Positions 26,170-46,787 of a DNA stretch of 64,000 bases are shown piece after piece. Source of the stretch: Acorus gramineus (lineage: Eukaryota; Streptophyta; Magnoliopsida; Acorales; Acoraceae); NCBI GenBank assembly GCA_030737835.1, contig CM060847.1:16344656-16408655 (forward strand), written 5' to 3'. The number at the start of each line of letters is the position of its first letter. The first letter of the stretch is position 1. A program made the position numbers and the translations under genes. The notes beneath the pieces are model-generated. The model had not been told where the DNA came from. It made no database searches and was given only the letters and a program-made list of their open reading frames with translations.

Positions 26170-26767
26170 ACTCTTAGATGAAACTTGTTAAGTGAATCGA
26201 TATGCGGATTTCATGTGAACTTCATCCGGTCAATATATTTTTAGATGTATTTGAATGGAAAAATATACCAATTAAAATGAGTTTGGGGAGCTCTGTTTCT
26301 TCAGAGTAGGCAATTTCAGCCTGGAAATTAAAATAAGTCAAACTGATTCAATTGTTTCAATCAAATGCGGCATCAAACATAATGATTTGTGCAAACCCAA
26401 TAAACAATCTAACCCAAAAGAAAATAAAGAAAGAAAAATCACCACGGGCAGAGAACCCCAAAAAAACATACATCCTCCAAAAAAAAAAAAAAAAAAAAAA
26501 AAACAATCTCTTTCACACTCAATAGAAGATTCAAACTCGTGTTTTCCCCCCAAAAAAAAAAAAATTGCAATTTTGATTTAGGATTTTCAAATCGCAAAAG
26601 TCGGGGCATTGTGATTCAGCCTCGACAGCAACTCTGACGCATTCTGTCGTAGATTGTCCGACTCCTGCACGTCCGGATCATGCCATCAATTGCCCCACCA
26701 CGCTGTAAGACACGAACGGCTCGGATTTGATCTTCCTCCGAGGATTGGAAAATTTGAAAGCTTTGAC
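26170..26767 (+). repeat. dispersed segment, copy 1, left flank of the viral locus
   Basis: Matches 44,189-44,480, the inverted 44,780-45,090, and 47,670-48,250. Landmarks are GATGAAACTTGTTAAGTGAA, TTTGGGGAGCTCTGTTTCTT, a poly(A) run, then CACGAACGGCTCGGATTTGA and CTTCCTCCGAGGATTGG. Viral sequence starts right after a GCTTTGACAATC word. Confidence 0.75.
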
Positions 26768-29120
26768 AATCATAAAAAATGATTTTTATTCATCAAAAAA
26801 TAATGAGAAAAGAAGATGGTTTTTCAACACTATACCCAAAGAAGAACAAGGTCCGATTAGAGAACAGTGGTATGATCATATGAGATTTGAACGAAACACT
26901 GTATATTTCTTTGATTGGTTTGAACAAACTTATATTCCGATGCTACAAAACATGCTCGTTGATCTTCCCAAAGAAGACCATGCTATGGTCCTTGAAAAAA
27001 TTGATAAATATACCACTAAATGGAGGAAGTATAACAATGAAGAGGTGGAATCTATCCACCCACCGTTTGAAAAGATTAAAGTTACAAAATCTGATATTAT
27101 AGCCAGCCCTCTTAAGACTACTACTGGGGTAGACCCTGGTAGTCCCTTCAAGGCTGAATATTTTATTCAGGTCATGGAACAAAATAATTTTACTAATGTT
27201 GCGTTAAGATCTATAAGTAGCCAAACTGAAAGGATAGAGAAAGCCCTCACTGAAAACAGTATCCTTGACAATATTCATACCGAAGGTCTGCAAAATCCAA
27301 AGACCCCGGCTACTTCATCCAAAAATATAGTCAAAAGGACTGAAAAACCAATATTCATTCCTCAACAGAATCTTGAAAAAGGGATCAAGTTCAAAGATAC
27401 ACATTCTGAAGAATTGCTGTTTAAATTATCTGAAAGATTGGGAAAGTTATCCATTAATAACATCAACGATGAGTCCTCTTGTGAAGAAGACTCTCAAAGT
27501 GATAGTGAGAGTGGAAGCATTCCTGAAAACTCTCCTGATCTTGAAAACTCGCCTGATCATTCTGATATTGAAATCAATAAGCTAGGGACTGTAACTCAGA
27601 CCTCGAGAACAAAAAACTTCTATAGGAGACCAACCCCAGTTGATGTTCAAATAGAAGAAAATAATGATGTTACTCTTACGACCTCCTATGATGGTAAATC
27701 TCTCGTTGAATGGAATCTTGATGGCATGTCTGAATATCAAATCAGCCAATTATGTCATTCTATGCTTATTTATGCTAATGCCTGTAGGATACAGGGCAAT
27801 AGTGATAAACATATAACAGATATGATAGCCACATCTTTCATGGGCCAATTAAGAGGTTGGTGGGATAACTTCCTTACCCCTGAGCAAAGACGTGCTATTT
27901 ATACAGCTGTAAAAGTAGATCCCAATGGGAGATCTGAGCCTGATATTGTCACTACTTTAGTTCTCACTATATTTAAACATTTTGTTGGCAGCCATAGTGA
28001 CACTGCTGACAGGATTAGAGAACAGCTTATAAATCTTAGGTGTCCAACCTTATCTGATTTTAGATGGTATAAGGACACATTTTTATCACAAATTTATAGG
28101 ATAGACAATTCAAGCAGTGATATTTGGAAAGAAAAGTTTGTCTCTGGGTTACCCAAGCTCTTTGCTGAAAGGGTTAGAAACAACCTTCGTCAAGAATATG
28201 GGGGACATATCCCTTACTCCGTCATAACATTCGGAGAGCTTATACAAAAAATAAACCTGATAGGTCTGGCTCTTTGCAATGACCTGAAGATAAAGAATCA
28301 GCTCAAAAATCAACATTTGACTTCCAAGAGAGAACTTGGAGACTTCTGCTACCAGTTCGGGTATCAGAAGGAAGACATTAAGAGTCCCTCTAGATCCCGG
28401 AAAAGGAATACCAAACATTCTTATAATAAAAGACCTCCTGAGAGAAGATATTATAACTCAAATAGAACTCCTGTCCAAAAACCCAGAAAGCGGTTCCCCA
28501 AAAAGAAACCCAGCACCTCTAGTCCTCCTACCTGCTTCAAATGCAAGCAGAAAGGACACTATGCCAATAAATGCTTTAGTAGAAAAACGAAAAATAAAGA
28601 ATCTATACAAAACTTAGAAGAACAGGATTCTGAGTCTGAAAATTGTGGCTGTGACTGTTGTGATCTTGAATCCTATGATTCATCCTCAGACACAGATGGC
28701 CTAATGGTCCTTTCAGTCCAAGAACAGTTCGTTTTAGATACTATTGATTCTATTGAGAATCCTGTCGAAAAGAAACGACAATTAGAAAAATATATCAGTT
28801 TAATAAAAACCCCTATCAGTCAGACTCAAGAAGAGAATAAGGAAAAATACTCTTATAAAGAGGTAATTCAAAGATTAGAATCTGAAAAACCCAAAAGGGT
28901 GACTATAGGGGAACTAAGAAAAGAACAAATTGATATGAAAAAAGAAATCAAGGACCTTAGAGACAGGGTTACATACCTTGAATCTATCCCAAAATCAGGG
29001 AAAACAATGAAAATTCTGATAATGAAGAACCTATCAGAGAGCAACCTGAAGAAGAAGAAGAATTTATTAGCTCTCTCGAAAGATATACAAAACAAAAATG
29101 GAATGTTGAAGTTCTCCTAA
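26727..29120 (+). pseudogene. copy A: coat protein and zinc-knuckle part of polyprotein
   Basis: A 797-residue frame; the first 13 or so residues are host sequence read through. The coat-protein-like core is followed by a basic region and a CCHC zinc knuckle (CFKCKQKGHYANKC), the mark of Caulimoviridae capsid proteins. The frame continues into the protease linker and is broken by an indel near 29,005, after which the last 40 residues are out of frame. There is no movement-protein domain and no natural start codon, so this is a 5'-truncated relic. Confidence 0.85.
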
Positions 29121-29476
29121 AAATTAAGACATTTTCTTTAAAATACAAAGCCCTTATTGACACTGGGGCAGATATGAACTGCATTAGGGAAGGATTGATC
29201 CCTTCAAGATACTTTGAAAAGACTACCCATGGTATAAACACTGCCAATGGGGAGAGCCTAAAGATTAATTATAAGATACCAGATGTCCATGTTTGTAATA
29301 AAGGATCATGTTTAAAGACATCGTTCCTTTTAGTAAAAGATCTTCGTCAGGGTGTCATCCTAGGAACCCCCTTCATAAATATGATAAAGCCCTTCTCGGT
29401 TGATACTGAAGGCATCCATGCCACCCAAAATGGGAAAAATATTTTATACAAATTTTGTGCTATCCCCAATAAGTAA
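29100..29476 (+). pseudogene. copy A: aspartic protease fragment
   Basis: Contains the retroviral-type aspartic protease motif LIDTGADMN near 29,155-29,180 and a GTPFINM flap-like segment. The frame runs to a stop at about 29,476, where 0.5 kb of the linker and RT start have been deleted. Confidence 0.8.
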
Positions 29477-30124
29477 GATTTGATCAAGAGGGTCTATAAT
29501 TCCAAAATTTTTTCTAAATTTGACCTTAAATCAGGATTCTGGCAAATCCAGATAAAAGAGGAAGATAGATATAAGACTGCATTTACAGTGCCATTTGGGC
29601 ATTATGAGTGGAATGTTTTACCTTTTGGGCTAAAAAAATGCACCCTCAGAATTTCAAAACATAATGAACGAAATATTTAATCCTTATGGATCCTTTTCCA
29701 TTGTCTATATTGATGACGTATTAATATTTTCTGAGAACATAGATAAACATTGGAAACATCTGAATATCTTTCTTAAAATAGTAAAACAAAATGGTCTGGT
29801 AGTATCTGCCAAAAAGATAAAACTCTTCCAGACCACAGTTCAATTTCTAGGATATAAAATCTCTGGAAATGATATTACACCCATAAAAAGGGTAATAGAT
29901 TTTGCAGACAAATTCCCGGATTACATGAAAGATAAAAAGCAACTTCAAAGGTTTCTTGGTTGTCTCAACTATGTCTCAGACTTCTATAAAAATGTAGCTT
30001 TGGACAGAAAGCTTTTGTCCAACAGACTAAAGAAAAATCCTACACCTTGGACCATAGAACATACCCATGCAGTCCAAAGGATTAAAGGGAAAGTAAAGCA
30101 GTTGCCTTGCTTGAATATAGCAAG
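29477..30124 (+). pseudogene. copy A: reverse transcriptase fragment
   Basis: RT motifs FSKFDLKSGFWQI and the catalytic YIDDVLIFS box (near 29,708) are present, but in two frames because of an indel near 29,637 (a run of seven A). The N-terminal fingers are missing from this position. Confidence 0.85.
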
Positions 30125-30376
30125 CCCCAAAGCTATCTTTTCTCAACCAGCTTAGACAGGCCTTAGAATACAAAGAAAAGTTTATTAATGAGCTCTCTGA
30201 AGAGATCAGGTTCCAGAAGACATCTGAGCAAATTAGTAGTCCCATTTTCCAAAAGAAGGTCTCTGATTTTCAAAAAACTATTGAAAATGAGGCCTGTTCA
30301 GACCTTCCCTCTGCCTTCTGGCATAAGAAAAAGCATATGGTAAGCCTACCATACATCAAAGACTTTAATGAAGAAA
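30124..30376 (+). pseudogene. copy A: displaced protease-RT linker segment
   Basis: These 250 bases correspond to copy B 38,155-38,410, which lies upstream of the RT there. Here the segment sits downstream of the RT, joined after a CAAGCCCCAAAG overlap and joined again to the C-terminal region at GAAGAAAACCTC. RNase H is therefore missing from copy A. Confidence 0.8.
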
Positions 30377-31401
30377 ACCTCTGTACCACTATTCTCTATT
30401 GAGAAATCTGAAGTAGACAAAGAAATAGCAGAACTTATCAAGATATACTTTCCCAAAGATGACCATTCTGGTACTGGTTATCATTTTTATATCCCTGAAA
30501 TGATAGGGAAAAATCCTGATTATTATGAAAATATCCTTTTAGAAACAAACAGTGCCAGGATTGTGCACCACTATAAAAATAAAAACACCTTAGAGATCTC
30601 ATACTCTAAACTATGCATCCAAAAGATATTAACCTTAAGAAACTGGGACAAGAACCCCAATGCTTCTAGGCGATTCCAAAAATCAATGATCAGACCCAAC
30701 TACTATAACTATTGGGATTATCAAAAAGCTTGGGAAAATGTACTATTAGTTCAAAATTGTGTCCTAAAACATTCTTGGTTTATCCATTTTGTCTGCCAAG
30801 CCAACATTCCAACTTGGTTTTACTCCTGGTGGCAAGTATTTGGTGCTGATGGAAGAATTTACCAGAAGGTATCCAAACTCATATGGAACAGGAAGAGTTA
30901 AACCCCCAAAATAATATTGATTTATTACAATACCACAATCAGACAGGGATACCATGGATCCTCCAATGGGATTTCCAGGTAGAAAAAAGATTTCCTCCTC
31001 ACCTCAAGAGGGACGTATACACAAAATGGTGGGTTAAATATAACCCACAGAAAATTTTATCTGGTTATAAATTACCAATTTATGGAAGGCCACGAGAAGA
31101 TAGTTATGAGACTATCAAAGCAAGCCTTATTGGAGAATACACTAAAAGATTCCCAAATTTGAGCCAGGAATCCATTGCATTAAAGGCATATGAGCACATG
31201 TTTAAAATGTTCAAAGGAGACAAGCCCGCAACCACAATGGCAACCAACTCTCGAGGTCCGGGAGGGACTCAACAAGGGTTAGAAGATGACTCTCAAAGGC
31301 CAGAAGATTGTGATTCTCAAAATACCGACAATGACTCCCAAGGGCTTGAAAACATACCCTCTGATTTTCCTGAAGACGAGTTTGATCCAGCGGAAGGGTA
31401 G
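30377..31401 (+). pseudogene. copy A: C-terminal polyprotein region
   Basis: Two overlapping frames (30,368-30,901 and 30,883-31,401) encode the same region as copy B 36,700-35,664, split by a one-base loss near 30,850. The region is rich in aromatic residues (WFYSWWQVFGAD, PWILQWDFQVEKRFP) and ends with an acidic, Gln/Ser-rich tail. I do not recognise its function. Confidence 0.75.
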
Positions 31402-31990
31402 TAAAAAAAAAAAAAGATAATAATAAAATAATATATATAACAGGAAGAAGAATCCAGAAGACCCTAGCAACTCACGGGTTCAAAAAGGACAGTCACGGGA
31501 GCGCATGACAAAAAAGAAAAAGAAGAAATGACTTAAAGCAAAAAGATGTCACCAGAAGAGGACAAGAAGTCACTCAAGGAAGAATGACCACGGATTCCAA
31601 ACCCATTGAAGTCCGCAAGCTTTGCCTATAAAAAGGAGGAGAGTTAGTCGAAGGAGGGCATCGGCGAAAAAACCAAGTCCACAAGAACCCTCTACCAAAA
31701 AACCCAGAGTACTTTGTAACATAGAAGATTGGGCAAAAGAGGGAGATATCCTTCTCAATCCCAGAGTTGTAAGTTTTCTTTTCTGTAAGCCTATGTGCTA
31801 CGTTCTATGTATTATACATGTTACTATGTAATATGGTTTATGCATGTTTAATAAGATAAGTCTTTCCAGTTTCCATCCTTTCTGTCTTCTGTCATTTAAT
31901 TTTCAAAATTAAAAAAAAAAAAAAATTGTCTTAAAAGTTTTTATTCTAAAAGAAAGAAAAAATTTGTCTTAAAAGTTTTTATTCTAAAAG
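31402..31990 (+). promoter_or_regulatory. copy A: viral intergenic region and promoter
   Basis: Non-coding DNA between the polyprotein stop and the primer-binding site. A TATA box (CTATAAAAAGG) lies at 31,626-31,636. TGAC-containing words precede it (GTCACCAG, AAGTCACTC, AATGACCAC). An AATAAG word near 31,851, about 220 bases downstream of the TATA box, could serve in polyadenylation. This matches the usual pararetrovirus full-length-RNA promoter. It points toward 32,003 and so into the inverted copy C. Confidence 0.75.
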
Positions 31991-32003
31991 TGGTATCAGA
32001 GCC
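31991..32003 (+). other. copy A: tRNA-Met primer-binding site
   Basis: TGGTATCAGAGCC is the standard initiator-tRNA-Met complement that primes minus-strand synthesis in Caulimoviridae. It marks the zero point of the viral map. Viral sequence stops here. Confidence 0.9.
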
Positions 32004-32045
32004 AAGTGTCAATCTTGGGGATCTGATATATTAATGAGCTCTCTG
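32004..32045. other. junction filler between copies A and C
   Basis: Bases 32,004-32,019 equal a 16-base word of host flank at 42,578-42,593. Bases about 32,032-32,045 equal a viral word (TTAATGAGCTCTCT) from the protease-RT linker. Between them are a dozen bases without a clear source. Composite filler of this kind is typical of error-prone end joining or template switching. Confidence 0.65.
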
Positions 32046-33000
32046 GGTTTTTGGACAGGAGTTCTATTTGAGTTATAATATCTTCTCTCAGGAGGTCTTT
32101 TATTATAAGAATGTTTGGTATTCCTTTTCCGGGATCTAGAGGGACTCTTAATGTCTTCCTTCTGATACCCGAACTGGTAGCAGAAGTCTCCAAGTTCTCT
32201 CTTGGAAGTCAAATGTTGATTTTTGAGCTGATTCTTTATCTTTAGGTCATTGCAAAGAGCCAGACCTATCAGGTTTATTTTTTGTATAAGCTCTCCGAAT
32301 GTTATGACGGAGTAAGGGATATGTCCCCCATATTCTTGACGAAGGTTGTTTCTAACCCTTTCAGCGAAGAGCTTGGGTAGCCCAGAGACAAACTTTTCTT
32401 TCCAAATATCACTGCTTGAATTGTCTATCCTATAAATTTGTGATAAAAATGTGTCCTTATACCATCTAAAATCAGATAAGGTTGGACACCTAAGATTTAT
32501 AAGCTGTTCTCTAATCCTGTCAGCAGTGTCACTATGGCTGCCAACAAAATGTTTAAATATAGTGAGAACTAAAGTAGTGACAATATCAGGCTCAGATCTC
32601 CCATTGGGATCTACTTTTACAGCTGTATAAATAGCACGTCTTTGCTCAGGGGTAAGGAAGTTATCCCACCAGCCTCTTAATTGGCCCATGAAAGATGTGG
32701 CTATCATATCTGTTATATGTTTATCACTATTGCCCTGTATCCTACAGGCATTAGCATAAATAAGCATAGAATGACATAATTGGCTGATTTGATATTCAGA
32801 CATGCCATCAAGATTCCATTCAACGAGAGATTTACCATCATAGGAGGTTGTAAGAGTAACATCATTATTTTCTTCTATTTGAACATCAACTGGGGTTGGT
32901 CTCCTATAGAAGTTTTTTGTTCTCGAGGTCTGAGTTATAGTCCCTAGCTTATTGATTTCAATATCAGAATGATCAGGAGTTTTCAGGATCAGGAGAGTTT
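32009..33000 (-). pseudogene. copy C: coat protein, part 2
   Basis: Continuation of the coat-protein region in another frame after the two-base loss near 32,980 (the open frame itself starts at 33,154). It includes GQLRGWWDNFLTPEQR and the basic stretch before the zinc knuckle. The last eight residues come from junction filler. Confidence 0.8.
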
Positions 33001-34637
33001 TCAGGAATGCTTCCACTCTCACTATCATCTTGAGAGTCTTCTTCACAAGAGGACTCATCGTTGATGTTATTAATGGATAACTTTCCCAGTCTTTCAGATA
33101 ATTTAAACAGCAATTCTTCAGAATGTGTATCTTTGAACTTGATCCCTTTTTCAAGATTCTGTTGAGGAATGAATATTGGTTTTTCAGTCCTTTTGACTAT
33201 ATTTTTGGATGAAGTAGCCGGGGTCTTTGGATTTTGCAGACCTTCGGTATGAATACTGTCAAGGATACTGTTTTCAGTGAGGGCTTTCTCTATCCTTTCA
33301 GTTTGGCTACTTATAGATCTTAACGCAACATTAGTAAAATTATTTTGTTCCATGACCTGAATAAAATATTCAGCCTTGAAGGGACTGCCAGGGTCTACCC
33401 CAGTAGTAGTCTTAAGAGGGCTGGCTATAATATCAGATTTTGTAACTTTAATCTTTTCAAACGGTGGGTGGATAGATTCCACCTCTTCATTGTTATACTT
33501 CCTCCATTTAGTGGTATATTTATCAATTTTTTCAAGGACCATAGCATGGTCTTCTTTGGGAAGATCAACGAGCATGTTTTGTAGCATCGGAATATAAGTT
33601 TGTTCAAACCAATCAAAGAAATATACAGTGTTTCGTTCAAATCTCATATGATCATACCACTGTTCTCTAATCGGACCTTGTTCTTCTTTGGGTATAGTGT
33701 TGAAAAACCATCTTCTTTTCTCATTATTTTTTGAAGAATAAAAATCATTTTTTATGATTTCTTTGTTTATTTCATAGTCATCATTCTCACTTATAGTAAG
33801 CATGTCCGACTCAACGGGATCATATTCAGATAAAGGAATTTCATTTTGAGTTTCAGCTTCATAAACAGCTGAAGCAACTCCTATAGGCTGGCTAAAGTAG
33901 GAGGCATGGGTTGCCGAATACTGGCTATCTCTCTCAGAAACAGAGCGTCTTCTGGGAGTCAAGTTTTCTCTTCTGCTTACCGGAGTAGTTCTAAAAGATC
34001 TTGTCCTTTGTAAACTACAATTAGTATTAGAAAATCGTATTTCAATATTACCATCTTTTTCAAGAATTTCTTTAAGGTCTGAGTTTTCCAGGGGTCTATC
34101 AGGTTGAGCATTTTCAAGGGTCCAGGAATTAGGTAGTCTGATCTCATCCCATTTTAAAGCTTTAGGGATAAAGAAGTTATTCTTTGGGTTAGTCTGAAGT
34201 AAAGTAGTAATACCTTTAATATCAGAAACCCTGCTTTTAGGGGCTAAAGTATTCATAACCTTGAAATAAACTCTATAACTAAGGTTTATATTTAATGTGC
34301 CATTATTAAGGCTGAAACCATCCGTCTGGATTCTTAGGACTAAAGCGTCCAAAATGTTGGGATCAGCTAAGGACACAGAGAAATTAGGAAAGGCATTAAA
34401 AAATATCGGTCCTTTACTTAAGCTGGATTCAACTATCCCAAGAACAGAATCGGCAAATCTTAGATGCCTATTGTCTTGGAGACAAACTAGAACAGCAGTG
34501 TTCAAGTTCTCTCTAGCTAGGGCATGTACTGATACCTGCACTAATCCAATGTGAAGATAGTGATATTGGGATTTTGCCCTTATCCTGTCTATTTCCTTTT
34601 GGGATATAAGGTGGAAATTCTCATGCCCATCAGTCAA
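32973..34637 (-). pseudogene. copy C: movement protein and coat protein, part 1
   Basis: A 554-residue frame. The first 170 residues show a 30K-type movement-protein core (GLVQVSVHALARENL, ADSVLGIVE, VSLADPNILDALVL). The coat-protein part follows. Upstream, the codon equal to Trp60 of the copy B frame is TGA (34,734-34,736), so the natural N-terminus is cut off. The frame ends because two bases are missing near 32,980. Confidence 0.85.
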
Positions 34638-35070
34638 AGGGATGGTTCTTTCAATAGTCTTGATATAATAGTCTGTTTTAAGACTAAAGGTGTTACAAAC
34701 ATAAATCTCGTTGAATGGGACTTTAGGGATTTTTCAATTACTGACAGATTGTTCTATATTCTCATAGTTTATCTGTTGCATGTTTTTAATGGACATAGTC
34801 CTAATGGCAGGGGGATTTGATGCTCTAGAGGTGGAGGCTCCATCCGTAGAAGTGGAGGCTTCATGTACCCATGATATAAGGGATCGGAAAAGATTGGCCA
34901 TGAGGGAGTGCAAGGAAACCAGTCAACGACGTATTACGTCCCTAACTCTACTGAACCTTAGAAGAGAGTGTGGACAACGCGACTACAAGGTTATAAAAGC
35001 ACTGTTCACCGGCCGGTACTGTTCATAAAGTACTGTTCATACAAGCAAATCCCTTAAAAAATTAGTTTTT

Positions 35071-35083
35071 GGCTCTGATACCA
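35071..35083 (-). other. copy B/C boundary: tRNA-Met primer-binding site
   Basis: TGGTATCAGAGCC on the minus strand. It is the second viral zero point, 7,344 bases from the one at 42,415-42,427, which defines the unit length. Confidence 0.9.
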
Positions 35084-35663
35084 CTTTTACTATAAAAACT
35101 TTTAAGACAAATTTTTTCTTTCTTTTAGAATAAAAACTTTTAAGACAATTTTTTTTTTTTTTTTTAATTTTGAAAATTAATTGACAGAAGACAGATAGGA
35201 TGGAAATTGAAAAGACTTATCTTATTAAACATGCATAAACCATATTACATAGCAACATGTATAATACATAGAACGTAGCACATAGGCTTACAGAAAAGAA
35301 AACTTACAACTCTGGGATTGAGAAGGATATCTCCCTCTTTTGCCCAATCTTCTATGTTACAAAGTACTCTGGGTTTTTTGGTAGAGGGTTCTTGTGGACT
35401 TGGTTTTTTCGCCGATGCCCTCCTTCGACTAACTCTCCTCCTTTTTATAGGCAAAGCTTGCGGACTTCAATGGGTTTGGAATCCGTGGTCATTCTTCCTT
35501 GAGTGACTTCTTGTCCTCTTCTGGTGACATCTTTTTGCTTTAAGTCATTTCTTCTTTTTCTTTTTTGTCATGCGCTCCCGTGACTGTCCTTTTTGAACCC
35601 GTGAGTTGCTAGGGTCTTCTGGATTCTTCTTCCTGTTATATATTATCTTATATTATTTTATTT
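35084..35663 (-). promoter_or_regulatory. copy B: viral intergenic region and promoter
   Basis: Same as 31,402-31,990 but inverted. The TATA box occupies 35,440-35,450 (minus-strand CTATAAAAAGG). The sequence around it is identical to that of copy A over at least 60 bases. It faces leftward into copy C and would make sense RNA of that copy, while copy A's promoter makes antisense. Confidence 0.75.
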
Positions 35664-36971
35664 TTATCCTTCAGCTGGATCAAACTCGTCTTCAGGAAAA
35701 TCTGAGGGTATGTTTTCAAGCCCTTGGGAGTCATTGTCCGTATTTTGAGAATCACAATCTTCTGGCCTTTGAGAGTCATCTTCTAACCCTTGTTGAGTCC
35801 CTCCCGGACCTCGAGAGCTGGTTGCCATTGTGGTTGTGGGCTTGTCTCCTTTGAACATCTTGAACATGTGCTCATATGCCTTTAATGCAATGGATTCCTG
35901 GCTCAAATTTGGGAATCTTTTAGTGTATTCTCCAATAAGGCTTGCTTTGATAGTCTCATAACTATCTTCTCGTGGCCTTCCATAAATTGGTAATTTATAA
36001 CCAGATAAAATTTTCTGTGGGTTATATTTAACCCACCATTTTGTGTATACGTCCCTCTTGAGGTGAGGAGGAAATCTTTTTTCTACCTGGAAATCCCATT
36101 GGAGGATCCATGGTATCCCTGTCTGATTGTGGTATTGTAATAAATCAATATTATTTTGGGGGTTTAACTCTTCCTGTTCCATATGGGTTTGGATACCTTC
36201 TGGTAAATTTTTCCAATCAGCACCAAATACTTGCCACCAGGAGTAAAACCAAGTTGGAATGTTGGCTTGGCAGACAAAATGGATAAACCAAGAATGTTTT
36301 AGGACACAATTTTGAACTAATAGTACATTTTCCCAAGCTTTTTGATAATCCCAATAGTTATAGTAGTTGGGTCTGATCATTGATTTTTGGAATCGCCTAG
36401 AAGCATTGGGGTTCTTGTCCCAGTTTCTTAAGGTTAATATCTTTTGGATGCATAGTTTAGAGTATGAGATCTCTAAGGTGTTTTTATTTTTATAGTGGTG
36501 CACAATCCTGGCACTGTTTGTTTCTAAAAGGATATTTTCATAATAATCAGGATTTTTCCCTATCATTTCAGGGATATAAAAATGATAACCAGTACCAGAA
36601 TGGTCATCTTTGGGAAAGTATATCTTGATAAGTTCTGCTATTTCTTTGTCTACTTCAGATTTCTCAATAGAGAATAGTGGTACAGAGGTTTTGAATTCAT
36701 AATTGCTTTGTGATTCTGGGGATGCTATTTCAGCAAGTACGGCAAATTGATTTTGATTTTCAAAGAGATTTTCTTCCTTAACCTCTGGCTTTATGAGGTT
36801 TACAGAAGGTCTTGAGCTCTCAATTTTAGGGTCCTTTGTGGAAGGATCTTTGCCTTCTTCTTTTGGTCCATTTCCCTGCAAGAATTCACGTGAGAGATAA
36901 TCAGGAAGACTATTAAAGTCCCCTTTAATATATTCTATGTCAAAATCATAAATCCTAATAATGCTTGCCAT
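35664..36971 (-). pseudogene. copy B: RNase H end and C-terminal region
   Basis: A 435-residue frame. Residues 1-30 are the end of RNase H and its connector (IYDFDIEYIKGDFNSLPDYL). After a Lys/Glu/Pro-rich linker comes a 300-residue region rich in Trp and Tyr that I cannot assign, ending in an acidic tail (DFPEDEFDPAEG). The frame is separated from the RNase H core by a shift near 36,965. Confidence 0.8.
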
Positions 36972-37468
36972 CTAGCAAAAATTTGTTTCGAAGCAAGATT
37001 TTTTACATCTTTTTCAAGTACATATTTTGCCGAGCTACAATCTATCCTTAAGAGGAACTTTTGGTTTAAAATGTCCCCTTGGAATTTGGTTATGCAATTA
37101 ACTATGGCAAGGATCTCCTTTTTTATTGTGGAATACTTTCTTTGAGCTTCATTCCACGTCCCTGAAGTAAATCTTACTAATTGTTCTTTGTTATCAATCC
37201 TTTGTTTCAGTATTCCTCCATATCCTATGTCAGAGGCATCAGTTTCTATGATTTTTGGTGCATTGGGGCTTGCTATATTCAAGCATGGCAACTGCTTTAC
37301 TTTCCCTTTAATCCTTTGGACTGCATGGGTATGTTCTATGGTCCAAGGTGTAGGATTTTTCTTTAGTCTGTTGGACAAAAGCTTTCTGTCCAAAGCTACA
37401 TTTTTATAAAAGTCTGAGACATAGTTGAGACAACCAAGAAACCTTTGAAGTTGTTTTTTATCTTTCAT
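36935..37468 (-). pseudogene. copy B: RT thumb and RNase H
   Basis: A 177-residue frame. It starts with the RT thumb/connection (RFLGCLNYVSDFY) and continues into RNase H, with IETDASDIGYGGIL, the Glu-bearing KEILAIV helix and LRIDCSSAKYVL, the usual acidic active-site pattern. Frameshifts cut it off from both neighbours. Confidence 0.85.
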
Positions 37469-37571
37469 GTATCCGGGAATTTGTCTGCAAAATCTATTAC
37501 CCTTTTTATGGGCGTAATATCATTTCCCGAGATTTTATATCCTAGAAATTGAACTGTGGTCTGGAAGAGTT

Positions 37572-39164
37572 TTATCTTTTTGCAGATACTACCAGACCAT
37601 TTTGTTTTACTATTTTAAGAAAGATATTCAGATGTTTCCAATGTTTATCTATGTTCTCAGAAAATATTAATACGTCATCAATATAGACAATGGAAAAGGA
37701 TCCATAAGGATTAAATATTTCATTCATTATGTTTTGAAATTCCGAGGGTGCATTTTTTAGCCCAAAAGGTAAAACATTCCACTCATAATGCCCAAATGGC
37801 ACTGTAAATGCAGTCTTATATCTATCTTCCTCTTTTATCTGGATTTGCCAGAATCCTGATTTAAGGTCAAATTTAGAAAAAATTTTGGAATTATAGACCC
37901 TCTTGATCAGATCTTGCTTATTGGGGATAGGATACCTGATCCACTGGAGAACTTTATTTAATGGCTTGTAATTTATGACAAGTCTTGGTACTCCCCTTTC
38001 TAACTCTGCGGCTTTCTCTACATAGAAAGCTGCACAGCTCCAAGGTGAGGAGCTCTTCCTAATAAGGTTTTTTGCAAGTAGCTGGGATACTTCCTCTTTG
38101 CAGATCTCAAGGAGCCTATTATTCATTTGGATAGGCCTGGCTTTTGTGGGGATGTTTTCTTCATTAAAGTCTTTGATGTATGGTAGACTTACCATATGCT
38201 TTTTCTTATGCCAGAAGGCAGAGGGAAGGTCTGAACAGGCCTCATTTTCAATAGTTTTTTGAAAATCAGAGACCTTCTTTTGGAAAATGGGACTACTAAT
38301 TTGCTCAGATGTCTTCTGGAACCTGATCTCTTCAGAGAGCTCATTAATAAACTTTTCTTTGTATTCTAAGGCCTGTCTAAGCTGGTTGAGAAAAGATAGC
38401 TTTGGTGTAGCACAAAATTTGTATAAAATATTTTTCCCATTTTGGGTGGCATGGATGCCTTCAGTATCAACCGAGAAGGGCTTTATCATATTTATGAAGG
38501 GGGTTCCTAGGATGACACCCTGACGAAGATCTTTTACTAAAAGGAACGATGTCTTTAAACATGATCCTTTATTACAAACATGGACATCTGGTATCTTATA
38601 ATTAATCTTTAGGCTCTCCCCATTGGCAGTGTTTATACCATGGGTAGTCTTTTCAAAGTATCTTGAAGGGATCAATCCTTCCCTAATGCAGTTCATATCT
38701 GCCCCAGTGTCAATAAGGGCTTTGTATTTTAAAGAAAATGTCTTAATTTTTAGGAGAACTTCAACATTCCATTTTTGTTTTGTATATCTTTCAAGAGAGC
38801 TAATAAATTCTTCTTCTTCAGGTTGCTCTCTGATAGGTTCTTCATTCTCAGAATTATCAGTGTTTTTCCCTAATTTTGGGATGGCTTCAAGGTATGTAAC
38901 CCTGTCTCTAAGGTCCTTGATTTCTTTTTTCATATCAATTTGTTCTTTTCTTAGTTCCCCTATAGTCACCCTTTTGGGTTTTTCAGATTCTAATCTTTGA
39001 ATTACCTCTTTATAAGAGTATTTTTCCTTATTATCTTCTTGAGTCTGACTGATAGGGGTTTTTATTAAACTGATATATTTTTCTAATTGTCGTTTCTTTT
39101 CGACAGGATTCTCAATAGAATCAATAGTATCTAAAACGAACTGTTCTTGGACTGAAAGGACCAT
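37572..39164 (-). pseudogene. copy B: protease and reverse transcriptase
   Basis: A 530-residue frame. Residues 1-140 are a Glu/Lys-rich linker with a coiled-coil look. The protease motif DTGAD starts at 152. RT follows, with PRLVINYKPLNK, KFDLKSGFWQI and the catalytic YIDD at 494-497. The frame ends soon after YIDD because one base is missing near 37,585 relative to copy A. In the natural virus this region is fused to the coat-protein part; here a stop at 39,258 separates them. Confidence 0.9.
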
Positions 39165-39257
39165 TAGGCCATCTGTGTCTGAGGATGAATCATAGGATTC
39201 AAGATCACAACAGTCACAGCCACAATTTTCAGACTCAGAATCCTGTTCTTCTAAGTT

Positions 39258-42257
39258 TTATATAGATTCTTTATTTTTCGTTTTTCTACTAAAGCATTTA
39301 TTGGCATAGTGTCCTTTCTGCTTGCATTTGAAGCAGGTAGGAGGACTAGAGGTGCTGGGTTTCTTTTTGGGGAACCGCTTTCTGGGTTTTTGGACAGGAG
39401 TTCTATTTGAGTTATAATATCTTCTCTCAGGAGGTCTTTTATTATAAGAATGTTTGGTATTCCTTTTCCCGGATCTAGAGGGACTCTTAATGTCTTCCTT
39501 CTGATACCCGAACTGGTAGCAGAAGTCTCCAAGTTCTCTCTTGGAAGTCAAATGTTGATTTTTGAGCTGATTCTTTATCTTCAGATCATTGCAAAGGGCC
39601 AGACCTATCAGGTTTATTTTTTGTATAAGCTCTCCGAATGTTATGACGGAGTAAGGGATATGTCCCCCATATTCTTGACGAAGGTTGTTTCTAACCCTTT
39701 CAGCGAAGAGCTTGGGTAGCCCAGAGACAAACTTTTCTTTCCAAATATCACTGCTTGAATTGTCTATCCTATAAATTTGTGATAAAAATGTGTCCTTATA
39801 CCATCTAAAATCAGATAAGGTTGGACACCTAAGATTTATAAGCTGTTCTCTAATCCTGTCAGCAGTGTCACTATGGCTGCCAACAAAATGTTTAAATATA
39901 GTGAGAACTAAAGTAGTGACAATATCAGGCTCAGATCTCCCGTTGGGATCTACTTTTACGGCTGTATAAATAGCACGTCTTTGCTCAGGGGTAAGGAAGT
40001 TATCCCACCAGCCTCTTAATTGGCCCATGAAAGATGTGGCTATCATATCTGTTATATGTTTATCACTATTGCCCTGTATCCTACAGGCATTAGCATAAAT
40101 AAGCATAGAATGACATAATTGGCTGATTTGATATTCAGACATGCCATCAAGATTCCATTCAACGAGAGATTTACCATCATAGGAGGTCGTAAGAGTAACA
40201 TCATTATTTTCTTCTATTTGAACATCAACTGGGGTTGGTCTCCTATAGAAGTTTTTTGTTCTCGAGGTCTGAGTTATAGTCCCTAGCTTATTGATTTCAA
40301 TATCAGAATGATCAGGCGAGTTTTCAGGATCAGGAGAGTTTTCAGGAATGCTTCCACTCTCACTATCATCTTGAGAGTCTTCTTCACAAGAGGACTCATC
40401 GTTGATGTTATTAATGGATAACTTTCCCAGTCTTTCAGATAATTTAAACAGCAATTCTTCAGAATGTGTATCTTTGAACTTGATCCCTTTTTCAAGATTC
40501 TGTTGAGGAATGAATATTGGTTTTTCAGTCTTTTTGACTATATTTTTGGATGAAGTAGCCGGGGTCTTTAGATTTTGCAGACCTTCGGTATGAATATTGT
40601 CAAGGATACTGTTTTCAGTGAGGGCTTTCTCTATCCTTTCAGTTTGGCTACTTATAGATCTTAACGCAACATTAGTAAAATTATTTTGTTCCATGACCTG
40701 AATAAAATATTCAGCCTTGAAGGGACTACCAGGGTCTATCCCAGTAGTAGTCTTAAGAGGGCTAGCTATAATATCAGATTTTGTAACTTTAATCTTTTCA
40801 AACGGTGGGTGGATAGATTCCACCTCTTCATTGTTATACTTCCTCCATTTAGTGGTATATTTATCAATTTTTTCAAGGACCATAGCATGGTCTTCTTTGG
40901 GAAGATCAACGAGCATGTTTTGTAGCATCGGAATATAAGTTTGTTCAAACCAATCAAAGAAATATACAGTGTTTCGTTCAAATCTCATATGATCATACCA
41001 CTGTTCTCTAATCGGACCTTGTTCTTCTTTGGGTATAGTGTTGAAAAACCATTTTCTTTTCTCATTATTTTTTGATGAATAAAAATCATTTTTTATGATT
41101 TCTTTGTTTATTTCATAGTCATCATTCTCACTTATAGTAAGCATGTCCGACTCAACGGGATCATATTCAGATAAAGGAATTTCATTTTGAGTTTCAGCTT
41201 CATAAACAGCTGAAGCAACTCCTATAGGCTGGCTAAAGTAGGAGGCATGGGTTGCCGAATACTGGCTATCTCTCTCAGAAATAGAGCGTCTTCTGGGAGT
41301 CAAGTTTTTCCTTCTGCTTACCGGAGTAGTTCTAAAAGATCTTGCCCTTTGTAAACTACAATTAGTATTAGAAAATCGTATTTCAATATTACCACCATCT
41401 TTTTCAAGAATTTCTTTAAGGTCTGAGTTTTCCAGGGGTCTATCAGGTTGAGCATTCTCAAGGGTCCAGGAATTAGGTAGTCTGATCTCATCCCATTTTA
41501 AAGCTTTAGGGATAAAAAAGTTATTCTTTGGGTTAGTCTGAAGTAAAGTAGTAATACCTTTAATATCAGAAACCCTGCTTTTAGGGGCTAAAGTATTCAT
41601 AACCTTGAAATAAACTCTATAACTAAGGTTTATATTTAATGTGCCATTATTAAGGCTGAAACCATTAGTCTGGATTCTTAGGACTAAAGCGTCCAAAATG
41701 TTGGGATCAGCTAAGGACACAGAGAAATTAGGAAAGGCATTAAAAAATATCGGTCCGTTACTTAAGCTGGATTCAACTATCCCAAGAACAGAATCGGCAA
41801 ATCTTAGATGCCTATTGTCTTGGAGACAAATTAGAACAGCAGTGTTCAAGTTCTCTCTAGCTAGGGCATGTACTGATACCTGCACTAATCCAATGTGAAG
41901 ATAGTGATACTGGGATTTAGCCGTTATCCTGTCTATTTCCTTTTGGGATATAAGGTGGAAATTCTCATGCCCATCAGTCAAAGGGATGGTTCTTTCAATA
42001 GTCTTGATATAATAGTCTGTTTTAAGACTAAAGGTGTTACAAACATAAATCTCGTTGAATGGGACTTTAGGGATTTTCCAATTACTGACAGATTGTTCTA
42101 TATTCTCATAGTTTATCTGTTGCATGTTTTTAATGGACATAGTCCTAATGGCAGGGGGATTTGATGCTCTAGAGGTGGAGGCTCCATCCGTAGAAGTGGA
42201 GGCTTCATGTACCCATGATATAAGGGATCGGAAAAGATTGGCCATGAGGGAGTGCAA
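39258..42257 (-). pseudogene. copy B: movement protein, coat protein and zinc knuckle
   Basis: A 999-residue frame. The 30K-type movement-protein core lies near residues 115-230. A Ser/Arg-rich linker, coat-protein core and acidic patch (ESGSIPENSPDPENSPD) follow, then a basic region and a CCHC knuckle at Cys975, Cys978, His983 and Cys988. The frame ends at a TAA (39,258-39,260) where copy A has a CAA codon, so this is a premature stop. The first ATG is at 42,257, another at 42,242; the true start is not certain. Confidence 0.9.
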
Positions 42258-42414
42258 GGAAACCAGTCAACGACGTATTACGTCCCTAACTCTACTGAAC
42301 CTTAGAAGAGAGTGTGGACAACGCGACTACAAGGTCACAAAAGCACTGTTCACCGGCCGGTACTGTTCATAAAGTACTGTTCATACAAGCAAATCCCTTA
42401 AGAAATCAAGTTTT

Positions 42415-42427
42415 GGCTCTGATACCA
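42415..42427 (-). other. copy B: tRNA-Met primer-binding site
   Basis: TGGTATCAGAGCC on the minus strand, followed by the 160-base leader to the first ATG. Only about nine viral bases lie between it and host DNA. Confidence 0.9.
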
Positions 42428-42436
42428 CTTTTAGAG

Positions 42437-43104
42437 ATCAAATTTGAAAGCTTTGACAATCCACTATAATGATAATAATGACAACAATCAGCAATCCCCA
42501 TAAACCCTCAATTGTCAAACCTTCCCTATTTTCCAATCCTCGGAGGAAGATCTAGGGGTAAAATGGATAAATCCAAAAAGTGTCAATCTTGGGTCATTCT
42601 CCAAAAAGACTGGTTGAAAATATCAATACTACGCATGTGAAAAAACAAATACACTGGTATAGAAACATGTCATTTAAAAGGAGTTGTTGGGTCAAAATAG
42701 AGAATTAAAAAAGCTGTGGTCATTTGTTTTATTCGGATGCCATTCACCCCTGTGAAAAAATAAATAGACTGGCATTGAAAATGTCATTTAAAAGGAGTTG
42801 TAAAGTCAAAATAGAGAACTTAAAAAAGCTTCGATCGAAAGCAAACCTACGCTGAAATGTCATTGTCGGCTTGTCGCCCTTGGAAAATAAAACAAATTGA
42901 TGAGTATAGAAACATGTCATTCCATCGCTCCGATACAAAAAAAAAAAAACAAAAACCAAAAAGTATCAATCTTGGGTTATTCTCCCAAAAAAGACTGGTA
43001 TAAAAACATTTCATTTAAAAAGGAGTTGTGGAGTCAAAATAGAGAAATAAAAAAAATTTGCGTCAAAAGAGCGAAAAGACTACTGTACCTCTGCTCAATG
43101 CCAC
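42437..43104. repeat. right flank of the viral locus, three imperfect repeats
   Basis: Bases 42,440-42,461 repeat, in direct orientation, the 22 host bases at 26,750-26,771. Bases about 42,500-42,555 are an inverted copy of the host repeat otherwise seen at 48,211-48,270 (CCAATCCTCGGAGGAAGATC). Bases 42,570-43,070 hold three imperfect units of about 190 bases sharing GTCATTTAAAAGGAGTTG and GTCAAAATAGAGAA. No gene is seen. Confidence 0.6.
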
Positions 43105-43162: not shown

Positions 43163-43269
43163 CCTTCATTCTGATCATTCAGGTTCTCTATCCCTTCCCA
43201 CCAAATCAAAACCATTGTGCAATGATCAAGTGATCAGCCCTTCCCTCCGAGCCAACCTTCGCAGCTTCC

Positions 43270-43770
43270 ATGGTTCACCTCCCCTCCTCTTCCCCAACCC
43301 GGCTCCCACCAACCCCACCACACCACGCACTCATGAAGTTCGCTCTCTTGGTCATCTCCTTCTCCACAGCTGCCTTGTTTAACATCCCCATGTCTCCCCC
43401 ACAAATCACTGCTTCGCGAATCTTCCTCATCATCTATTCCGTCATCGTTTACGCCGTGTTCGTTGTCGGTCTCTGCCTCCTCTCCGTCTCCCTCATCCGC
43501 CGAACACCTTCCCCTTCATCGAACCGCCGCCAGACCCCACCTCGCAAGGCAGTCTTGAGGCTTGCGATCTGGGCGATCGCGCTCTCGGCGGGTGCGCTCT
43601 TCAACCTCCCGACGGCGACGACAGAGACCTCGTTTGGGGAGGTTCTTGTCATGGTTTATGCTGTCACGATGTTCTTGACACTCAATATGGGTTTGGTTCT
43701 CCTCTGTTGGAACCTGCAAAAACAACAGAGGTTCCCGTCTCCGCTCCTTGTAACTGCCCCCAACGTCTGA
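43270..43770 (+). CDS. four-helix membrane protein, copy 1
   Basis: 166 residues. It has two similar modules of two hydrophobic segments each: residues about 21-78 (FALLVISFSTAALFNIP then a long helix ending LLSVSLIRR) and 93-150 (LAIWAIALSAGALFNLP then FLTLNMGLVLLCWNLQ). A basic, Ser/Pro-rich loop separates them. The N-terminus is Pro/Ser-rich, and the tail PSPLLV.APNV is short. The ATG is in good context (TTCCATGG). I do not recognise a named family; the module resembles that in the small proteins at 1,000 and 18,058. The coding DNA is much more GC-rich than its surroundings. A family-type terminal helix follows out of frame at 43,830-43,908. A role at a membrane is inferred only. Confidence 0.7.
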   Translation: MVHLPSSSPTRLPPTPPHHALMKFALLVISFSTAALFNIPMSPPQITASRIFLIIYSVIVYAVFVVGLCLLSVSLIRRTPSPSSNRRQTPPRKAVLRLAIWAIALSAGALFNLPTATTETSFGEVLVMVYAVTMFLTLNMGLVLLCWNLQKQQRFPSPLLVTAPNV

Positions 43771-43819
43771 TGTGGGTCGAACTTGGTCTGGCCCTTCCAT
43801 TGAGAGATTGAACTCCGGT

Positions 43820-43908
43820 ATTAACATTTGTTTCTCATCTGGTGCTGTCTGAGCTTGTGTGCGCGTTATGTACTCTTGCCCTCCGTATGTCCCTCTTCAT
43901 CTTTTGAT
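43820..43908 (+). pseudogene. out-of-frame terminal-helix relic
   Basis: After the stop of the gene at 43,270, another frame reads HLVLSELVCALCTLALRMSL and ends FIF then stop, matching the last helix of the 1,000-1,320 protein (LVLSELVLAVVALAIRM). It is repeated in the inverted copy and near 47,350-47,425. It could be a decayed third module or a missed 3' exon. Confidence 0.5.
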
Positions 43909-44188
43909 ATATCCGTGTCATGTCTCCAAGTACCGGTTCAACTTGGGTTATGTTCAATAATGTTGAATTATATTTAGTTACCCAGATTTGTCTTTAATAT
44001 GTGATTTCAGCATGGAGTGTATTTTGCAATTTAATTTGTATGAATATCACATGTATGTTTTGCAGTTAGTTGATGGATTTTTAACAGAATCTATGATATT
44101 ACCCATGACCCCAAAATCGATTTTTTGAGTCCTCTGTCCTCAATTTTTTAAGATAATTGGAAAACCTTAAAAAGGGACTACAATTAGA

Positions 44189-44480
44189 TGAAACTTGTTA
44201 AGTGAATAGATCCGCGGATTTCGTGTGAACTTCATCCGGTCACTTGTTTTTTTAGATGGATTTGAATGGAAAAATATACCAATTAAAACGAGTTTGGGGA
44301 GCTCTGTTTCTTCAGAGTAGGCAATTTCAACCTGGAAATTAAAATAAGTCAAATTGATTCAATTGTTTCAATCAAATGCGGCATTAAACACAATGATTTC
44401 TGCAAACCCAACAAACAATCTAACCCAAAAGAATATAAAGAAAGAAAGAAAGAAAGAAAGCACAATCACCACGAACAGAG
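44189..44480 (+). repeat. dispersed segment, copy 2 (with inverted copy 44,780-45,080)
   Basis: Same segment as 26,170-26,430 and 47,670-47,930, starting GATGAAACTTGTTAAGTG. It lies about 280 bases downstream of the membrane-protein relic in each cluster copy. Confidence 0.7.
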
Positions 44481-45495
44481 AACCCCACAACATATAATTC
44501 ACACTTAATGGATATGAAACATAAACATTTTCTCACTAAATGTTCGTGGTGATTGTGCTTTTTTCTTTCTTTCTTTCTTTATATTCTTTTGGGTTAGATT
44601 GTTTGTTGGGTTTGCAGAAATCATTGTGTTTGAAAAATTAATGGGACATGTAGTTTGGAATATATGTTGTGTTGTTCGATTTTTAGGTTGTGCAGTTCAA
44701 AATCTTTTTATTTCTTTTGCACCTAAACATTTGAGAAAATGTTTATGTTTCATATCCATTAAGTGTGAATTATATGTTGTGGGGTTCTCTGTTCGTGGTG
44801 ATTGTGTTTTTTTTTTTCTTTCTTTCTTTATATTCTTTTGGGTTAGATTGTTTGTTGGGTTTGCAGAAATCACTGTGTTTAATGCCGCATTTGATTGAAA
44901 CAATTGAATCAATTTGACTTATTTTAATTTCCAGGCTGAAATTGCCTACTCTGAAGAAACAGAGCTCCCCAAACTCGTTTTAATTGGTATATTTTTCCAT
45001 TCAAATCCATCTAAAAAAACAAGTGACCGGATGAAGTTCACACGAAATCCGCGGATCTATTCACTTAACAAGTTTCATCTAATTGTAGTCCCTTTTTAAG
45101 GTTTTCCAATTATCTTAAAAAATTGAGGACAGAGGACTCAAAAAATCGATTTTGGGGTCATGGGTAATATCATAGATTCTGTTAAAAATCCATCAACTAA
45201 CTGCAAAACATACATGTGATATTCATACAAATTAAATTGCAAAATACACTCCATGCTGAAATCACATATTAAAGACAAATCTGGGTAACTAAATATAATT
45301 CAACATTATTGAACATAACCCAAGTTGAACCGGTACTTGGAGACATGACACGGATATATCAAAAGATGAAGAGGGACATACGGAGGGCAAGAGTACATAA
45401 CGCGCACACAAGCTCAGACAGCACCAGATGAGAAACAAATGTTAATACCGGAGTTCAATCTCTCAATGGAAGGGCCAGACCAAGTTCGACCCACA

Positions 45496-45996
45496 TCAGA
45501 CGTTGGGGGCAGTTACAAGGAGCGGAGACGGGAACCTCTGTTGTTTTTGCAGGTTCCAACAGAGGAGAACCAAACCCATATTGAGTGTCAAGAACATCGT
45601 GACAGCATAAACCATGACAAGAACCTCCCCAAACGAGGTCTCTGTCGTCGCCGTCGGGAGGTTGAAGAGCGCACCCGCCGAGAGCGCGATCGCCCAGATC
45701 GCAAGCCTCAAGACTGCCTTGCGAGGTGGGGTCTGGCGGCGGTTCGATGAAGGGGAAGGTGTTCGGCGGATCAGGGAGACGGAGAGGAGGCAGAGACCGA
45801 CAACGAACACGGCGTAAACGATGACGGAATAGATGATGAGGAAGATTCGCGAAGCAGTGATTTGTGGGGGAGACATGGGGATGTTAAACAAGGCAGCTGT
45901 GGAGAAGGAGATGACCAAGAGAGCGAACTTCATGAGTGCGTGGTGTGGTGGGGTTGGTGGGAGCCGGGTTGGGGAAGAGGAGGGGAGGTGAACCAT
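45496..45996 (-). CDS. four-helix membrane protein, copy 2 (inverted)
   Basis: Its protein is identical to that of the copy at 43,270 over all 166 residues. The DNA upstream differs: about 65 bases containing the TATA box and start region are gone, and CCTTCCTAT joins almost directly to TCCTTCCCACC near 46,070. Unless another promoter acts, this copy may be silent. It forms the right arm of the palindrome. Confidence 0.65.
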   Translation of the reverse strand: MVHLPSSSPTRLPPTPPHHALMKFALLVISFSTAALFNIPMSPPQITASRIFLIIYSVIVYAVFVVGLCLLSVSLIRRTPSPSSNRRQTPPRKAVLRLAIWAIALSAGALFNLPTATTETSFGEVLVMVYAVTMFLTLNMGLVLLCWNLQKQQRFPSPLLVTAPNV

Positions 45997-46105
45997 GGAA
46001 GCTGCGAAGGTTGGCTCGGAGGGAAGGGCTGATCACTTGATCATTGCACAATGGTTTTGATTTGGTGGGAAGGACATCACATAGGAAGGACATCACGCAA
46101 ATAAT

Positions 46106-46610: not shown

Positions 46611-46670
46611 TGAACATCGTTGTCGGTCTTTGCGTGATGTCCTTTGTATGTGGTATCTTATTTTTCTATC

Positions 46671-46680
46671 CTATAAATAG
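46671..46680 (+). promoter_or_regulatory. TATA box of membrane-protein copy 3
   Basis: CTATAAATAG, same spacing to the ATG as in copy 1, with the downstream leader GCCTTCATTCTGATCATTCA conserved. Confidence 0.7.
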
Positions 46681-46787
46681 CCTTCATTCTGATCATTCAG
46701 GTTCTCTAACCCTTCCCACCAAATCAAAACCATTGCGCAATGATCAATTGATCAGCCCTTCCCTCCGAGCCAACCTTCGCAGCTTCC

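What the first reader, a model, noticed from the sequence alone, without database searches (positions are those of the whole stretch)
31600..35460. Two convergent copies of the viral promoter flank copy C
Copy A ends with its promoter (TATA 31,626-31,636) pointing right, and copy B's promoter (TATA 35,440-35,450) points left. Between them lies only the 3-kb copy C. The sequence around both TATA boxes is identical. If both fire, sense and antisense RNA of the movement- and coat-protein region would be made from one locus, a ready source of dsRNA and siRNA against related virus. The geometry is read directly; the function is inference.
Basis: partly seen in the sequence, partly recalled or inferred. 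Interest (0 to 1): 0.8.

Follow-up and report, generated by a model that had tools for sequence, protein, structure and literature searches.

The report
Inverted viral insert with facing promoters
A sweet-flag (Acorus) chromosome carries a 15.7-kb block of plant-virus DNA that looks to have gone in as one piece during repair of a chromosome break and leaves two copies of the viral promoter pointing at each other; such blocks can make double-stranded RNA, but that was not tested here and is a known phenomenon.

Summary
The geometry is real: two TATA regions (31626-31636 +, 35440-35450 -), identical over 390 bp, point at each other. "Copy C" is not a separate copy: it continues B as one terminally redundant 1.4-unit run (42433 to about 32042, minus strand), to which A is joined head to head. 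The array 26772-42439 is best read as one insertion: a 22-bp direct repeat flanks it, and two paralogous empty sites elsewhere in the genome carry that sequence once. The A/C junction contains 16 bp (32004-32019) copied from the host flank (42578-42593) and 17 bp matching the virus. So the facing promoters look like a by-product of break repair, and an assembly error is very unlikely. The virus has florendovirus organisation; the host is an Acorus. Of 23 promoter copies examined, 11 read into antisense viral sequence within 4 kb, but only this pair faces each other. dsRNA/siRNA output is plausible: rearranged inverted-repeat caulimovirids make 22-nt siRNA in tomato (from a review). No RNA data were available. 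Each promoter's own read-through RNA could also fold into a hairpin (stem about 345 bp), so convergence is not required. A new member of a known kind; its origin is better supported than any function.

The parts
26750..26771 (+). left copy of the 22-bp target duplication
   Evidence: identical to 42440-42461, no other copy in the window on either strand
26768..32003 (+). viral block A: CP region to promoter, leader and PBS; internally rearranged in the RT-RNase H part (joins near 29463, 30130, 30378)
31626..31636 (+). TATA box of A's promoter-like region, pointing right
   Evidence: promoter function inferred
31850..31855 (+). poly(A)-like AATAAG in A's leader
   Evidence: function inferred
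31991..32003 (+). PBS-like TGGTATCAGAGCC at the right end of A
32004..32019 (+). junction filler, 16 bp identical to host flank 42578-42593
   Evidence: shuffle control; source native to two paralogous empty sites
32020..32028 (.). 9 bp of junction without an assigned source
32029..32045 (+). 17 bp identical to viral sequence at 30183-30199 and, reversed, 38333-38349; its last bases overlap the start of C
32042..35070 (-). 'copy C': MP-CP region, the continuation of B beyond one unit; reading frame interrupted
35071..35083 (-). internal PBS-like sequence of the B/C run
35221..35226 (-). poly(A)-like AATAAG in B's leader
   Evidence: function inferred
35440..35450 (-). TATA box of B's promoter-like region, pointing left
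   Evidence: promoter function inferred
35664..36971 (-). ORF2 of B, 435 aa, no Pfam match
35071..42433 (-). viral block B: one unit from just before its PBS to the internal promoter; polyprotein ORF interrupted
42415..42427 (-). PBS-like sequence at the right (5') end of B
42434..42439 (.). 6 bp between the viral end and the right target duplication
42440..42461 (+). right copy of the 22-bp target duplication
42578..42593 (+). host sequence that is the source of the 16-bp filler

Best explanation
A chromosome break in an Acorus genome, at a repeat-derived site with inverted arms, was repaired by capturing DNA of a florendovirus-like caulimovirid from a mixed population of viral genomes. One end took up a rearranged block ending at the PBS (A), the other a 1.4-unit run starting at the PBS (B+C). 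The two inner ends were joined head to head by template-switching repair that copied 16 bp from the host flank and 17 bp from the virus; a 22-bp target duplication was left outside. The opposed promoters are a by-product. If the locus is transcribed, RNA from A's promoter would be antisense to C and RNA from B's promoter sense to C, and each read-through RNA could also fold on itself through the two leaders (stem about 345 bp, loop about 3.1 kb). Dicing of such RNA into 21-24-nt siRNA is the likeliest biological effect, on the tomato precedent. Shown here: structure, target duplication with empty sites, templated junction, mixed viral origin. Inferred: that all blocks came in at one time, break repair by a theta-type pathway, transcription, siRNA, any effect on virus.
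For: 22-bp direct repeat at the two outer ends. Two paralogous sites (C8:19950461-19950790, C98:157736-158057) run straight across the insertion point with the 22-bp sequence once (exact at C98, one mismatch at C8). Junction filler from host flank and virus; 0 of 2000 shuffles of the 25-nt filler gave a 16-mer match anywhere in the window, and the longest match in 400-bp flanks was 12; the host 16-mer is also in both paralogs. Two of the four viral block ends lie within 8 bp of a PBS; that the minus-strand gap lies there is recalled. Short shared words at A's joins and left end. Mixed origin: at 44 of 62 sites that differ among A, B and C both alleles occur at other loci; synonymous excess in B-C (15 of 29, expected 28%, P 0.006) and A-B ORF2 (8 of 10, P 0.0004). 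Precedents: caulimovirid DNA as filler in break repair (PMC4241990 passages; PMC10377300 passages); siRNA from inverted-repeat caulimovirids.
Against: No RNA, small-RNA, methylation or read data. 9 bp of the junction (32020-32028) have no source. The synonymous excess is not significant for A-B ORF1 (11 of 27, P 0.097). The empty sites are paralogs, not the allele, so a later rearrangement inside an older insertion is not strictly excluded. The right-flank target stretch folds no better than shuffles (z 0.06). AATAAG between TATA and PBS may stop transcripts before C. C-to-T excess at CG/CHG is only suggestive (3-fold, P 0.056; unpolarised B-C P 0.28).
Confidence: 0.7

Rival explanations
1. 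One reading: both promoters fire, the sense and antisense RNAs of C pair, and the locus is kept because the siRNA protects against related virus.
For: Facing TATA regions identical over 390 bp; precedent that inverted-repeat caulimovirid loci give siRNA that silences matching transcripts (review).
Against: Only 1 of 9 close promoter pairs is convergent, so the geometry is not enriched; a single repair event explains it; the AATAAG after each TATA box may stop transcripts before C; no RNA data; no related virus now infecting Acorus is known to me, and none was sought beyond.
Confidence: 0.12
2. The locus is inert: methylated repeat DNA without notable transcription, or with 24-nt siRNA only.
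For: G/C-to-A/T excess, 14 of 23 polarised changes, 3.4-fold per site, P 0.006, with a weak lean to CG/CHG; endogenous caulimovirids are often methylated (PMC10377300 section 3.5); interrupted reading frames.
Against: The context bias is weak (P 0.056; unpolarised B-C P 0.28), and most A/B/C differences predate the insertion, so the spectrum may be viral.
Confidence: 0.4
3. Two-step origin: B/C or A came first, and the other came later or arose by inversion inside the older insertion.
For: The empty sites are paralogs, so the order of events is not seen directly; rearrangement between copies is discussed for other EPRVs (PMC1899175 passages).
Against: A's left end and B's right end share one 22-bp target duplication; the inner junction carries filler from this very flank.
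Confidence: 0.12
4. Assembly artefact at the A/C junction.
For: Long near-identical inverted repeats (98-99%) are hard to assemble; no reads were available.
Against: Copies differ by about 1%; the junction holds 16 bp copied from a host flank 10.5 kb away, in the same orientation, plus viral filler; the outer ends form a target duplication with empty-site paralogs.
Confidence: 0.02

Closest known systems
Transcriptionally competent siRNA areas (TSAs) of tomato: rearranged endogenous caulimovirids in inverted-repeat form giving 22-nt siRNA (Valli et al., known here only through review PMC10377300 section 3.5)
   Same: Rearranged endogenous caulimovirid with long inverted repeats and viral promoter-like regions.
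   Different: No siRNA shown here; two facing promoters; origin traced to an insertion with a templated host filler. Whether TSAs have facing promoters or such junctions I could not check (paper not held).
Endogenous florendoviruses (Geering et al. 2014, PMC4241990)
   Same: Unit length, ORF1 domain order, ORF2 size and lack of known domains, Met-tRNA PBS, over-length integrants joined through the PBS.
   Different: Not placed by phylogeny; A is inverted against B/C.
Filler DNA at T-DNA and break-repair junctions in plants (review PMC8395108, passages)
   Same: Inverted joining, microhomology, filler copied from the genome or from the insert.
   Different: Virus-derived DNA instead of T-DNA; one locus, from sequence only.
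Endogenous banana streak virus and rearranged solanaceous EPRVs (PMC10377300 section 3.4 and PMC1899175, passages)
   Same: Viral fragments duplicated in the same and opposite directions.
   Different: Other caulimovirid genera; no promoter-facing geometry was named in the passages seen.

Membership tests
Florendovirus (Geering 2014) | genome unit 7.2-8.5 kbp | tested here: met
   unit 7339-7344 bp from repeat spacing; range from PMC4241990 section 6
Florendovirus (Geering 2014) | ORF1 with MP, CP plus zinc finger, protease, RT, RNase H in this order | tested here: met
   Pfam MP, Caulimovir_coat_dom, zf-CCHC (21.2 bits, cut-off 20.8), RVP, RVT_1, RT_RNaseH in order on the minus strand of B; the ORF is interrupted in B
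Florendovirus (Geering 2014) | ORF2 of 45-58 kDa in another frame, without known domains | tested here: met
   435 aa (about 50 kDa by rule of thumb), no Pfam match; 15 homologues at E <= 0.001, among them a Sorghum bicolor protein at 3e-49
Florendovirus (Geering 2014) | Met-tRNA consensus at the genome start | tested here: met
   TGGTATCAGAGCC at three places; assignment to tRNA-Met in line with the PMC1899175 passage
Florendovirus (Geering 2014) | monophyly in AP-RT-RH1 phylogeny | not tested
   named reference sequences were not at hand; a citrus virus with similar organisation groups with petunia vein clearing virus, so organisation alone does not decide
TSA-type inverted-repeat endogenous caulimovirid | rearranged caulimovirid in inverted-repeat conformation | tested here: met
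TSA-type inverted-repeat endogenous caulimovirid | transcribed, with dense 22-nt DCL2-type siRNA | not testable with these tools
Single break-repair insertion with templated filler | target duplication and empty site | tested here: met
   22-bp repeat and two paralogous empty sites; the allelic empty site was not available
Single break-repair insertion with templated filler | filler copied from nearby host or insert sequence | tested here: met
   16 bp host plus 17 bp viral; shuffle control of the first 25 nt

The most novel reading that the evidence does not exclude
A plant can gain a ready-made RNA-interference locus in one step: repair of a single break captured DNA from several co-infecting variants of one virus, joined it head to head through host-templated filler, and so made facing promoters and long inverted repeats at the moment of endogenisation, with no later rearrangement needed. 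In this Acorus genome about half of the promoter copies examined (11 of 23) read into antisense viral sequence, so the capture process itself may favour loci that make dsRNA.
Probability: 0.25. Interest if true: 0.65.

Novelty: new member of a known kind. Interest (0 to 1): 0.42.

Why it matters
How inverted-repeat viral loci that feed plant RNA silencing arise is usually inferred in general terms (recombination among existing copies, or capture of concatemers; review passages). Here a target duplication, paralogous empty sites and a host-templated inner junction indicate that the inverted form was made at integration, from a mixed viral population. That makes a one-step origin of such loci testable in other genomes, by looking for host-flank filler at head-to-head joins.

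Tried and rejected
Copy C as an independent insertion: rejected, it continues B. Dating by A/B/C divergence: rejected, because at 44 of 62 differing sites both alleles occur at other loci. Methylation footprint as evidence of silencing: weak. Fragile hairpin at the target: the one stretch folded (42440-42560) is no better than shuffles. Relatives in IMG/VR: none by protein or by an exact promoter pattern. tRNA gene in the window: none by ARAGORN. A's internal rearrangement as a shared defective lineage: its three junctions (up to 3 substitutions) were found only in the window itself (L001 overlaps the window) among 38 loci held; the genome-wide search for it did not complete. Papers: no held paper has both 'Acorus' and 'pararetrovirus'; 'pararetrovirus' with 'convergent transcription' and 'inverted repeat' gave one paper, unrelated by title and abstract start; for at least three of 'caulimovirid', 'convergent', 'antisense', 'dsRNA' 585 papers exist and the 12 listed are not on this by title. 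These searches cover open-licence PMC papers only.
Full report
What is there. The window lies at G000:C1:16344656-16408655 of a 398.6-Mb genome. Its BTB-type protein at 11045-12280 is 95% identical, over 69% of the query, to one of Acorus calamus; the host is thus taken to be an Acorus, species not settled. Between 26768 and 42433 lies DNA of an endogenous caulimovirid: Pfam finds movement protein, coat protein, zinc knuckle, aspartic protease, RT and RNase H in that order, then a 435-aa ORF2 without a Pfam match.

The two promoters. CTATAAAAAGG occurs twice in the window, at 31626-31636 (+) and 35440-35450 (-). A and B are identical over a 390-bp run, 31433-31822 in A, which includes the TATA box. 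In both, AATAAG starts 224 nt after the start of the TATA box, and TGGTATCAGAGCC starts 355 nt (A) or 357 nt (B) after its end. That these are promoter, poly(A) signal and Met-tRNA primer site is inference from the family; a similar set of signals is described for tomato EPRVs (PMC1899175, passages).

Copy C belongs to B. 32038-35089 repeats 39377-42433 in the same orientation at 98.7%, with a spacing of 7339-7344 bp. Reading on the minus strand, the virus starts at 42433 (6 bp before a PBS), runs one unit to the internal promoter and PBS (35083-35071) and on to about 32042. B plus C is one over-length integrant of about 1.4 units. Geering et al. describe over-length florendovirus loci, one of them a 1.2-mer continued through a tRNA-Met consensus (PMC4241990, passages). 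A (26768-32003, plus strand) is joined to B/C head to head. A is itself rearranged: against B its blocks run P[1-856], P[1328-1995], P[853-1104], R[568-1592], with short shared words at the joins.

Insertion as a unit. AAATTTGAAAGCTTTGACAATC stands at 26750-26771 and at 42440-42461 and nowhere else in the window on either strand. A search of the genome with the right flank found two paralogous places that match it over its whole length, C8:19950461-19950790 and C98:157736-158057, both 94%. The joined host flanks, with one copy of the 22 bp, align straight through both: L030 (C8) over positions 1-671 of 671 at 89% with 43 gap columns, L031 (C98) over positions 177-671 at 95%; the first 176 positions do not align at C98. 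The 22-bp sequence is exact at C98 and has one mismatch at C8. The 15,668 bp between the repeats (26772-42439) are therefore best read as one insertion with a 22-bp target duplication. The outer ends are simple: A shares AATC with the target; B has 6 bp of filler.

The inner junction. Between the PBS of A and C lie 42 bp. The first 16 (32004-32019) equal the host flank at 42578-42593 in the same orientation; the last 17 (32029-32045), whose end overlaps the start of C, equal viral sequence at 30183-30199 and 38333-38349; 9 bp between them have no source. None of 2000 dinucleotide shuffles of the first 25 nt had a 16-mer match anywhere in the window on either strand, and the longest match in 400-bp flanks was 12. 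The 16-mer is native host sequence: both paralogous empty sites have it. The junction as a whole has one full-length match in the genome, itself, among 41 listed matches. Filler copied from the genome or from the insert, inverted joining and microhomology are features of plant end-joining and T-DNA junctions (PMC8395108, passages). So the head-to-head join was made at this chromosomal site, most simply during the same repair event. A misassembly would hardly produce it.

Mixed viral origin. In 16 alignment blocks of about 300 bp that held at least two window copies and at least four copies from other loci, A, B and C differ at 62 sites; at 44 both alleles are found at other loci, at 18 one allele is private to the window (blocks with fewer copies were dropped, and 19 of the 20 loci L009-L028 were used, L010 being left out because it overlaps L009). 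In a tree of a 591-bp CP stretch (15 copies, 14 after an identical one was dropped) A, B and C do not form a clade, though the supports are modest, 0.75-0.82 at the nodes concerned. Substitutions show a synonymous excess for B-C (15 of 29, P 0.006) and A-B ORF2 (8 of 10, P 0.0004), not for A-B ORF1 (11 of 27, P 0.097). Most of the roughly 1% divergence is therefore likely older than the insertion and cannot date it.

How unusual is the geometry? The promoter stretch has 41 matches in the genome, a lower bound. Of 9 neighbouring pairs closer than 20 kb, 1 is convergent (this one), 4 divergent, 4 tandem; one tandem member is a partial match without the TATA part. I mapped viral blocks around 23 promoter stretches that span the TATA position: 2 in the window and 21 in 20 fetched loci. 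Of the 23, 11 have at least 100 bp of antisense viral sequence within 4 kb downstream (9 of 21 outside the window), 7 of them starting within 1 kb (6 of 21 outside); only the window pair faces another such stretch (for one promoter in L015 only 3.4 kb downstream were held). Promoters that read into antisense viral DNA are common in this genome; two that face each other were seen once.

What it probably does. RNA from B's promoter would be leader plus sense C; RNA from A's promoter leader plus antisense C. Either, if it reads through, ends with the antisense of the opposite leader: a stem of about 345 bp (31.66-32.00 with 35.07-35.41) around a 3.1-kb loop, so one active promoter would be enough for dsRNA (inference). 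The inverted arms of the locus, up to 2.7 kb at 98-99%, would give longer hairpins to RNA that enters from outside. Against this, the AATAAG before the PBS may stop transcripts early, C's reading frame is interrupted, and the unit with the open 999-aa MP-CP frame has no viral promoter upstream of it within the insert. A G/C-to-A/T excess (14 of 23 polarised changes, 3.4-fold per site, P 0.006) with a weak lean to CG and CHG (P 0.056; unpolarised B-C P 0.28) fits methylation but does not show it.

Comparison. Organisation and unit length meet the florendovirus description (PMC4241990 section 6); phylogeny was not tested. As a mechanism it resembles the tomato TSAs: rearranged inverted-repeat caulimovirids that give 22-nt siRNA able to trigger degradation of matching transcripts (review PMC10377300 section 3.5). 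Inverted, duplicated and truncated EPRVs are reported from tomato, tobacco, rice and banana (passages). Hence: a new member of a known kind, with an unusually clear record of how it was made. Papers were seen as follows: PMC10377300 passages and section 3.5; PMC4241990 outline with abstract, passages, sections 6 and 11; PMC1899175, PMC9124383 and PMC8395108 passages; the others only as search listings; Valli et al. not seen.

Noticed in passing
window 43193-44544 and 44726-46073: A near-perfect inverted repeat of host DNA (99.3%, 1.35-kb arms) with a third copy at 46629-47966 (91%); each carries a 166-aa ORF with only Pfam matches below the cut-off.
   Followed up: partly
window 54532-56737: Tandem array of a unit of about 469 bp (94-96% identity), related to 13514-14194.
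   Followed up: no
L012 (C4:22997500-23007400): Another promoter that runs 440 bp into sense viral DNA and then into inverted viral sequence (R[1-1542], minus), a fold-back without an opposing promoter.
   Followed up: no
G000:C6:10879197-10880478 and C6:11069461-11070747: Two divergent promoter pairs about 190 kb apart with nearly equal spacing (1281 and 1286 bp), perhaps one rearrangement duplicated.
   Followed up: no
window 26690-26771 and 42440-42570: The insertion site joins two inverted ends of one repeat (shared GATCTTCCTCCGAGGATTGGAAAA); the same arrangement is at both paralogous empty sites.
   Followed up: partly
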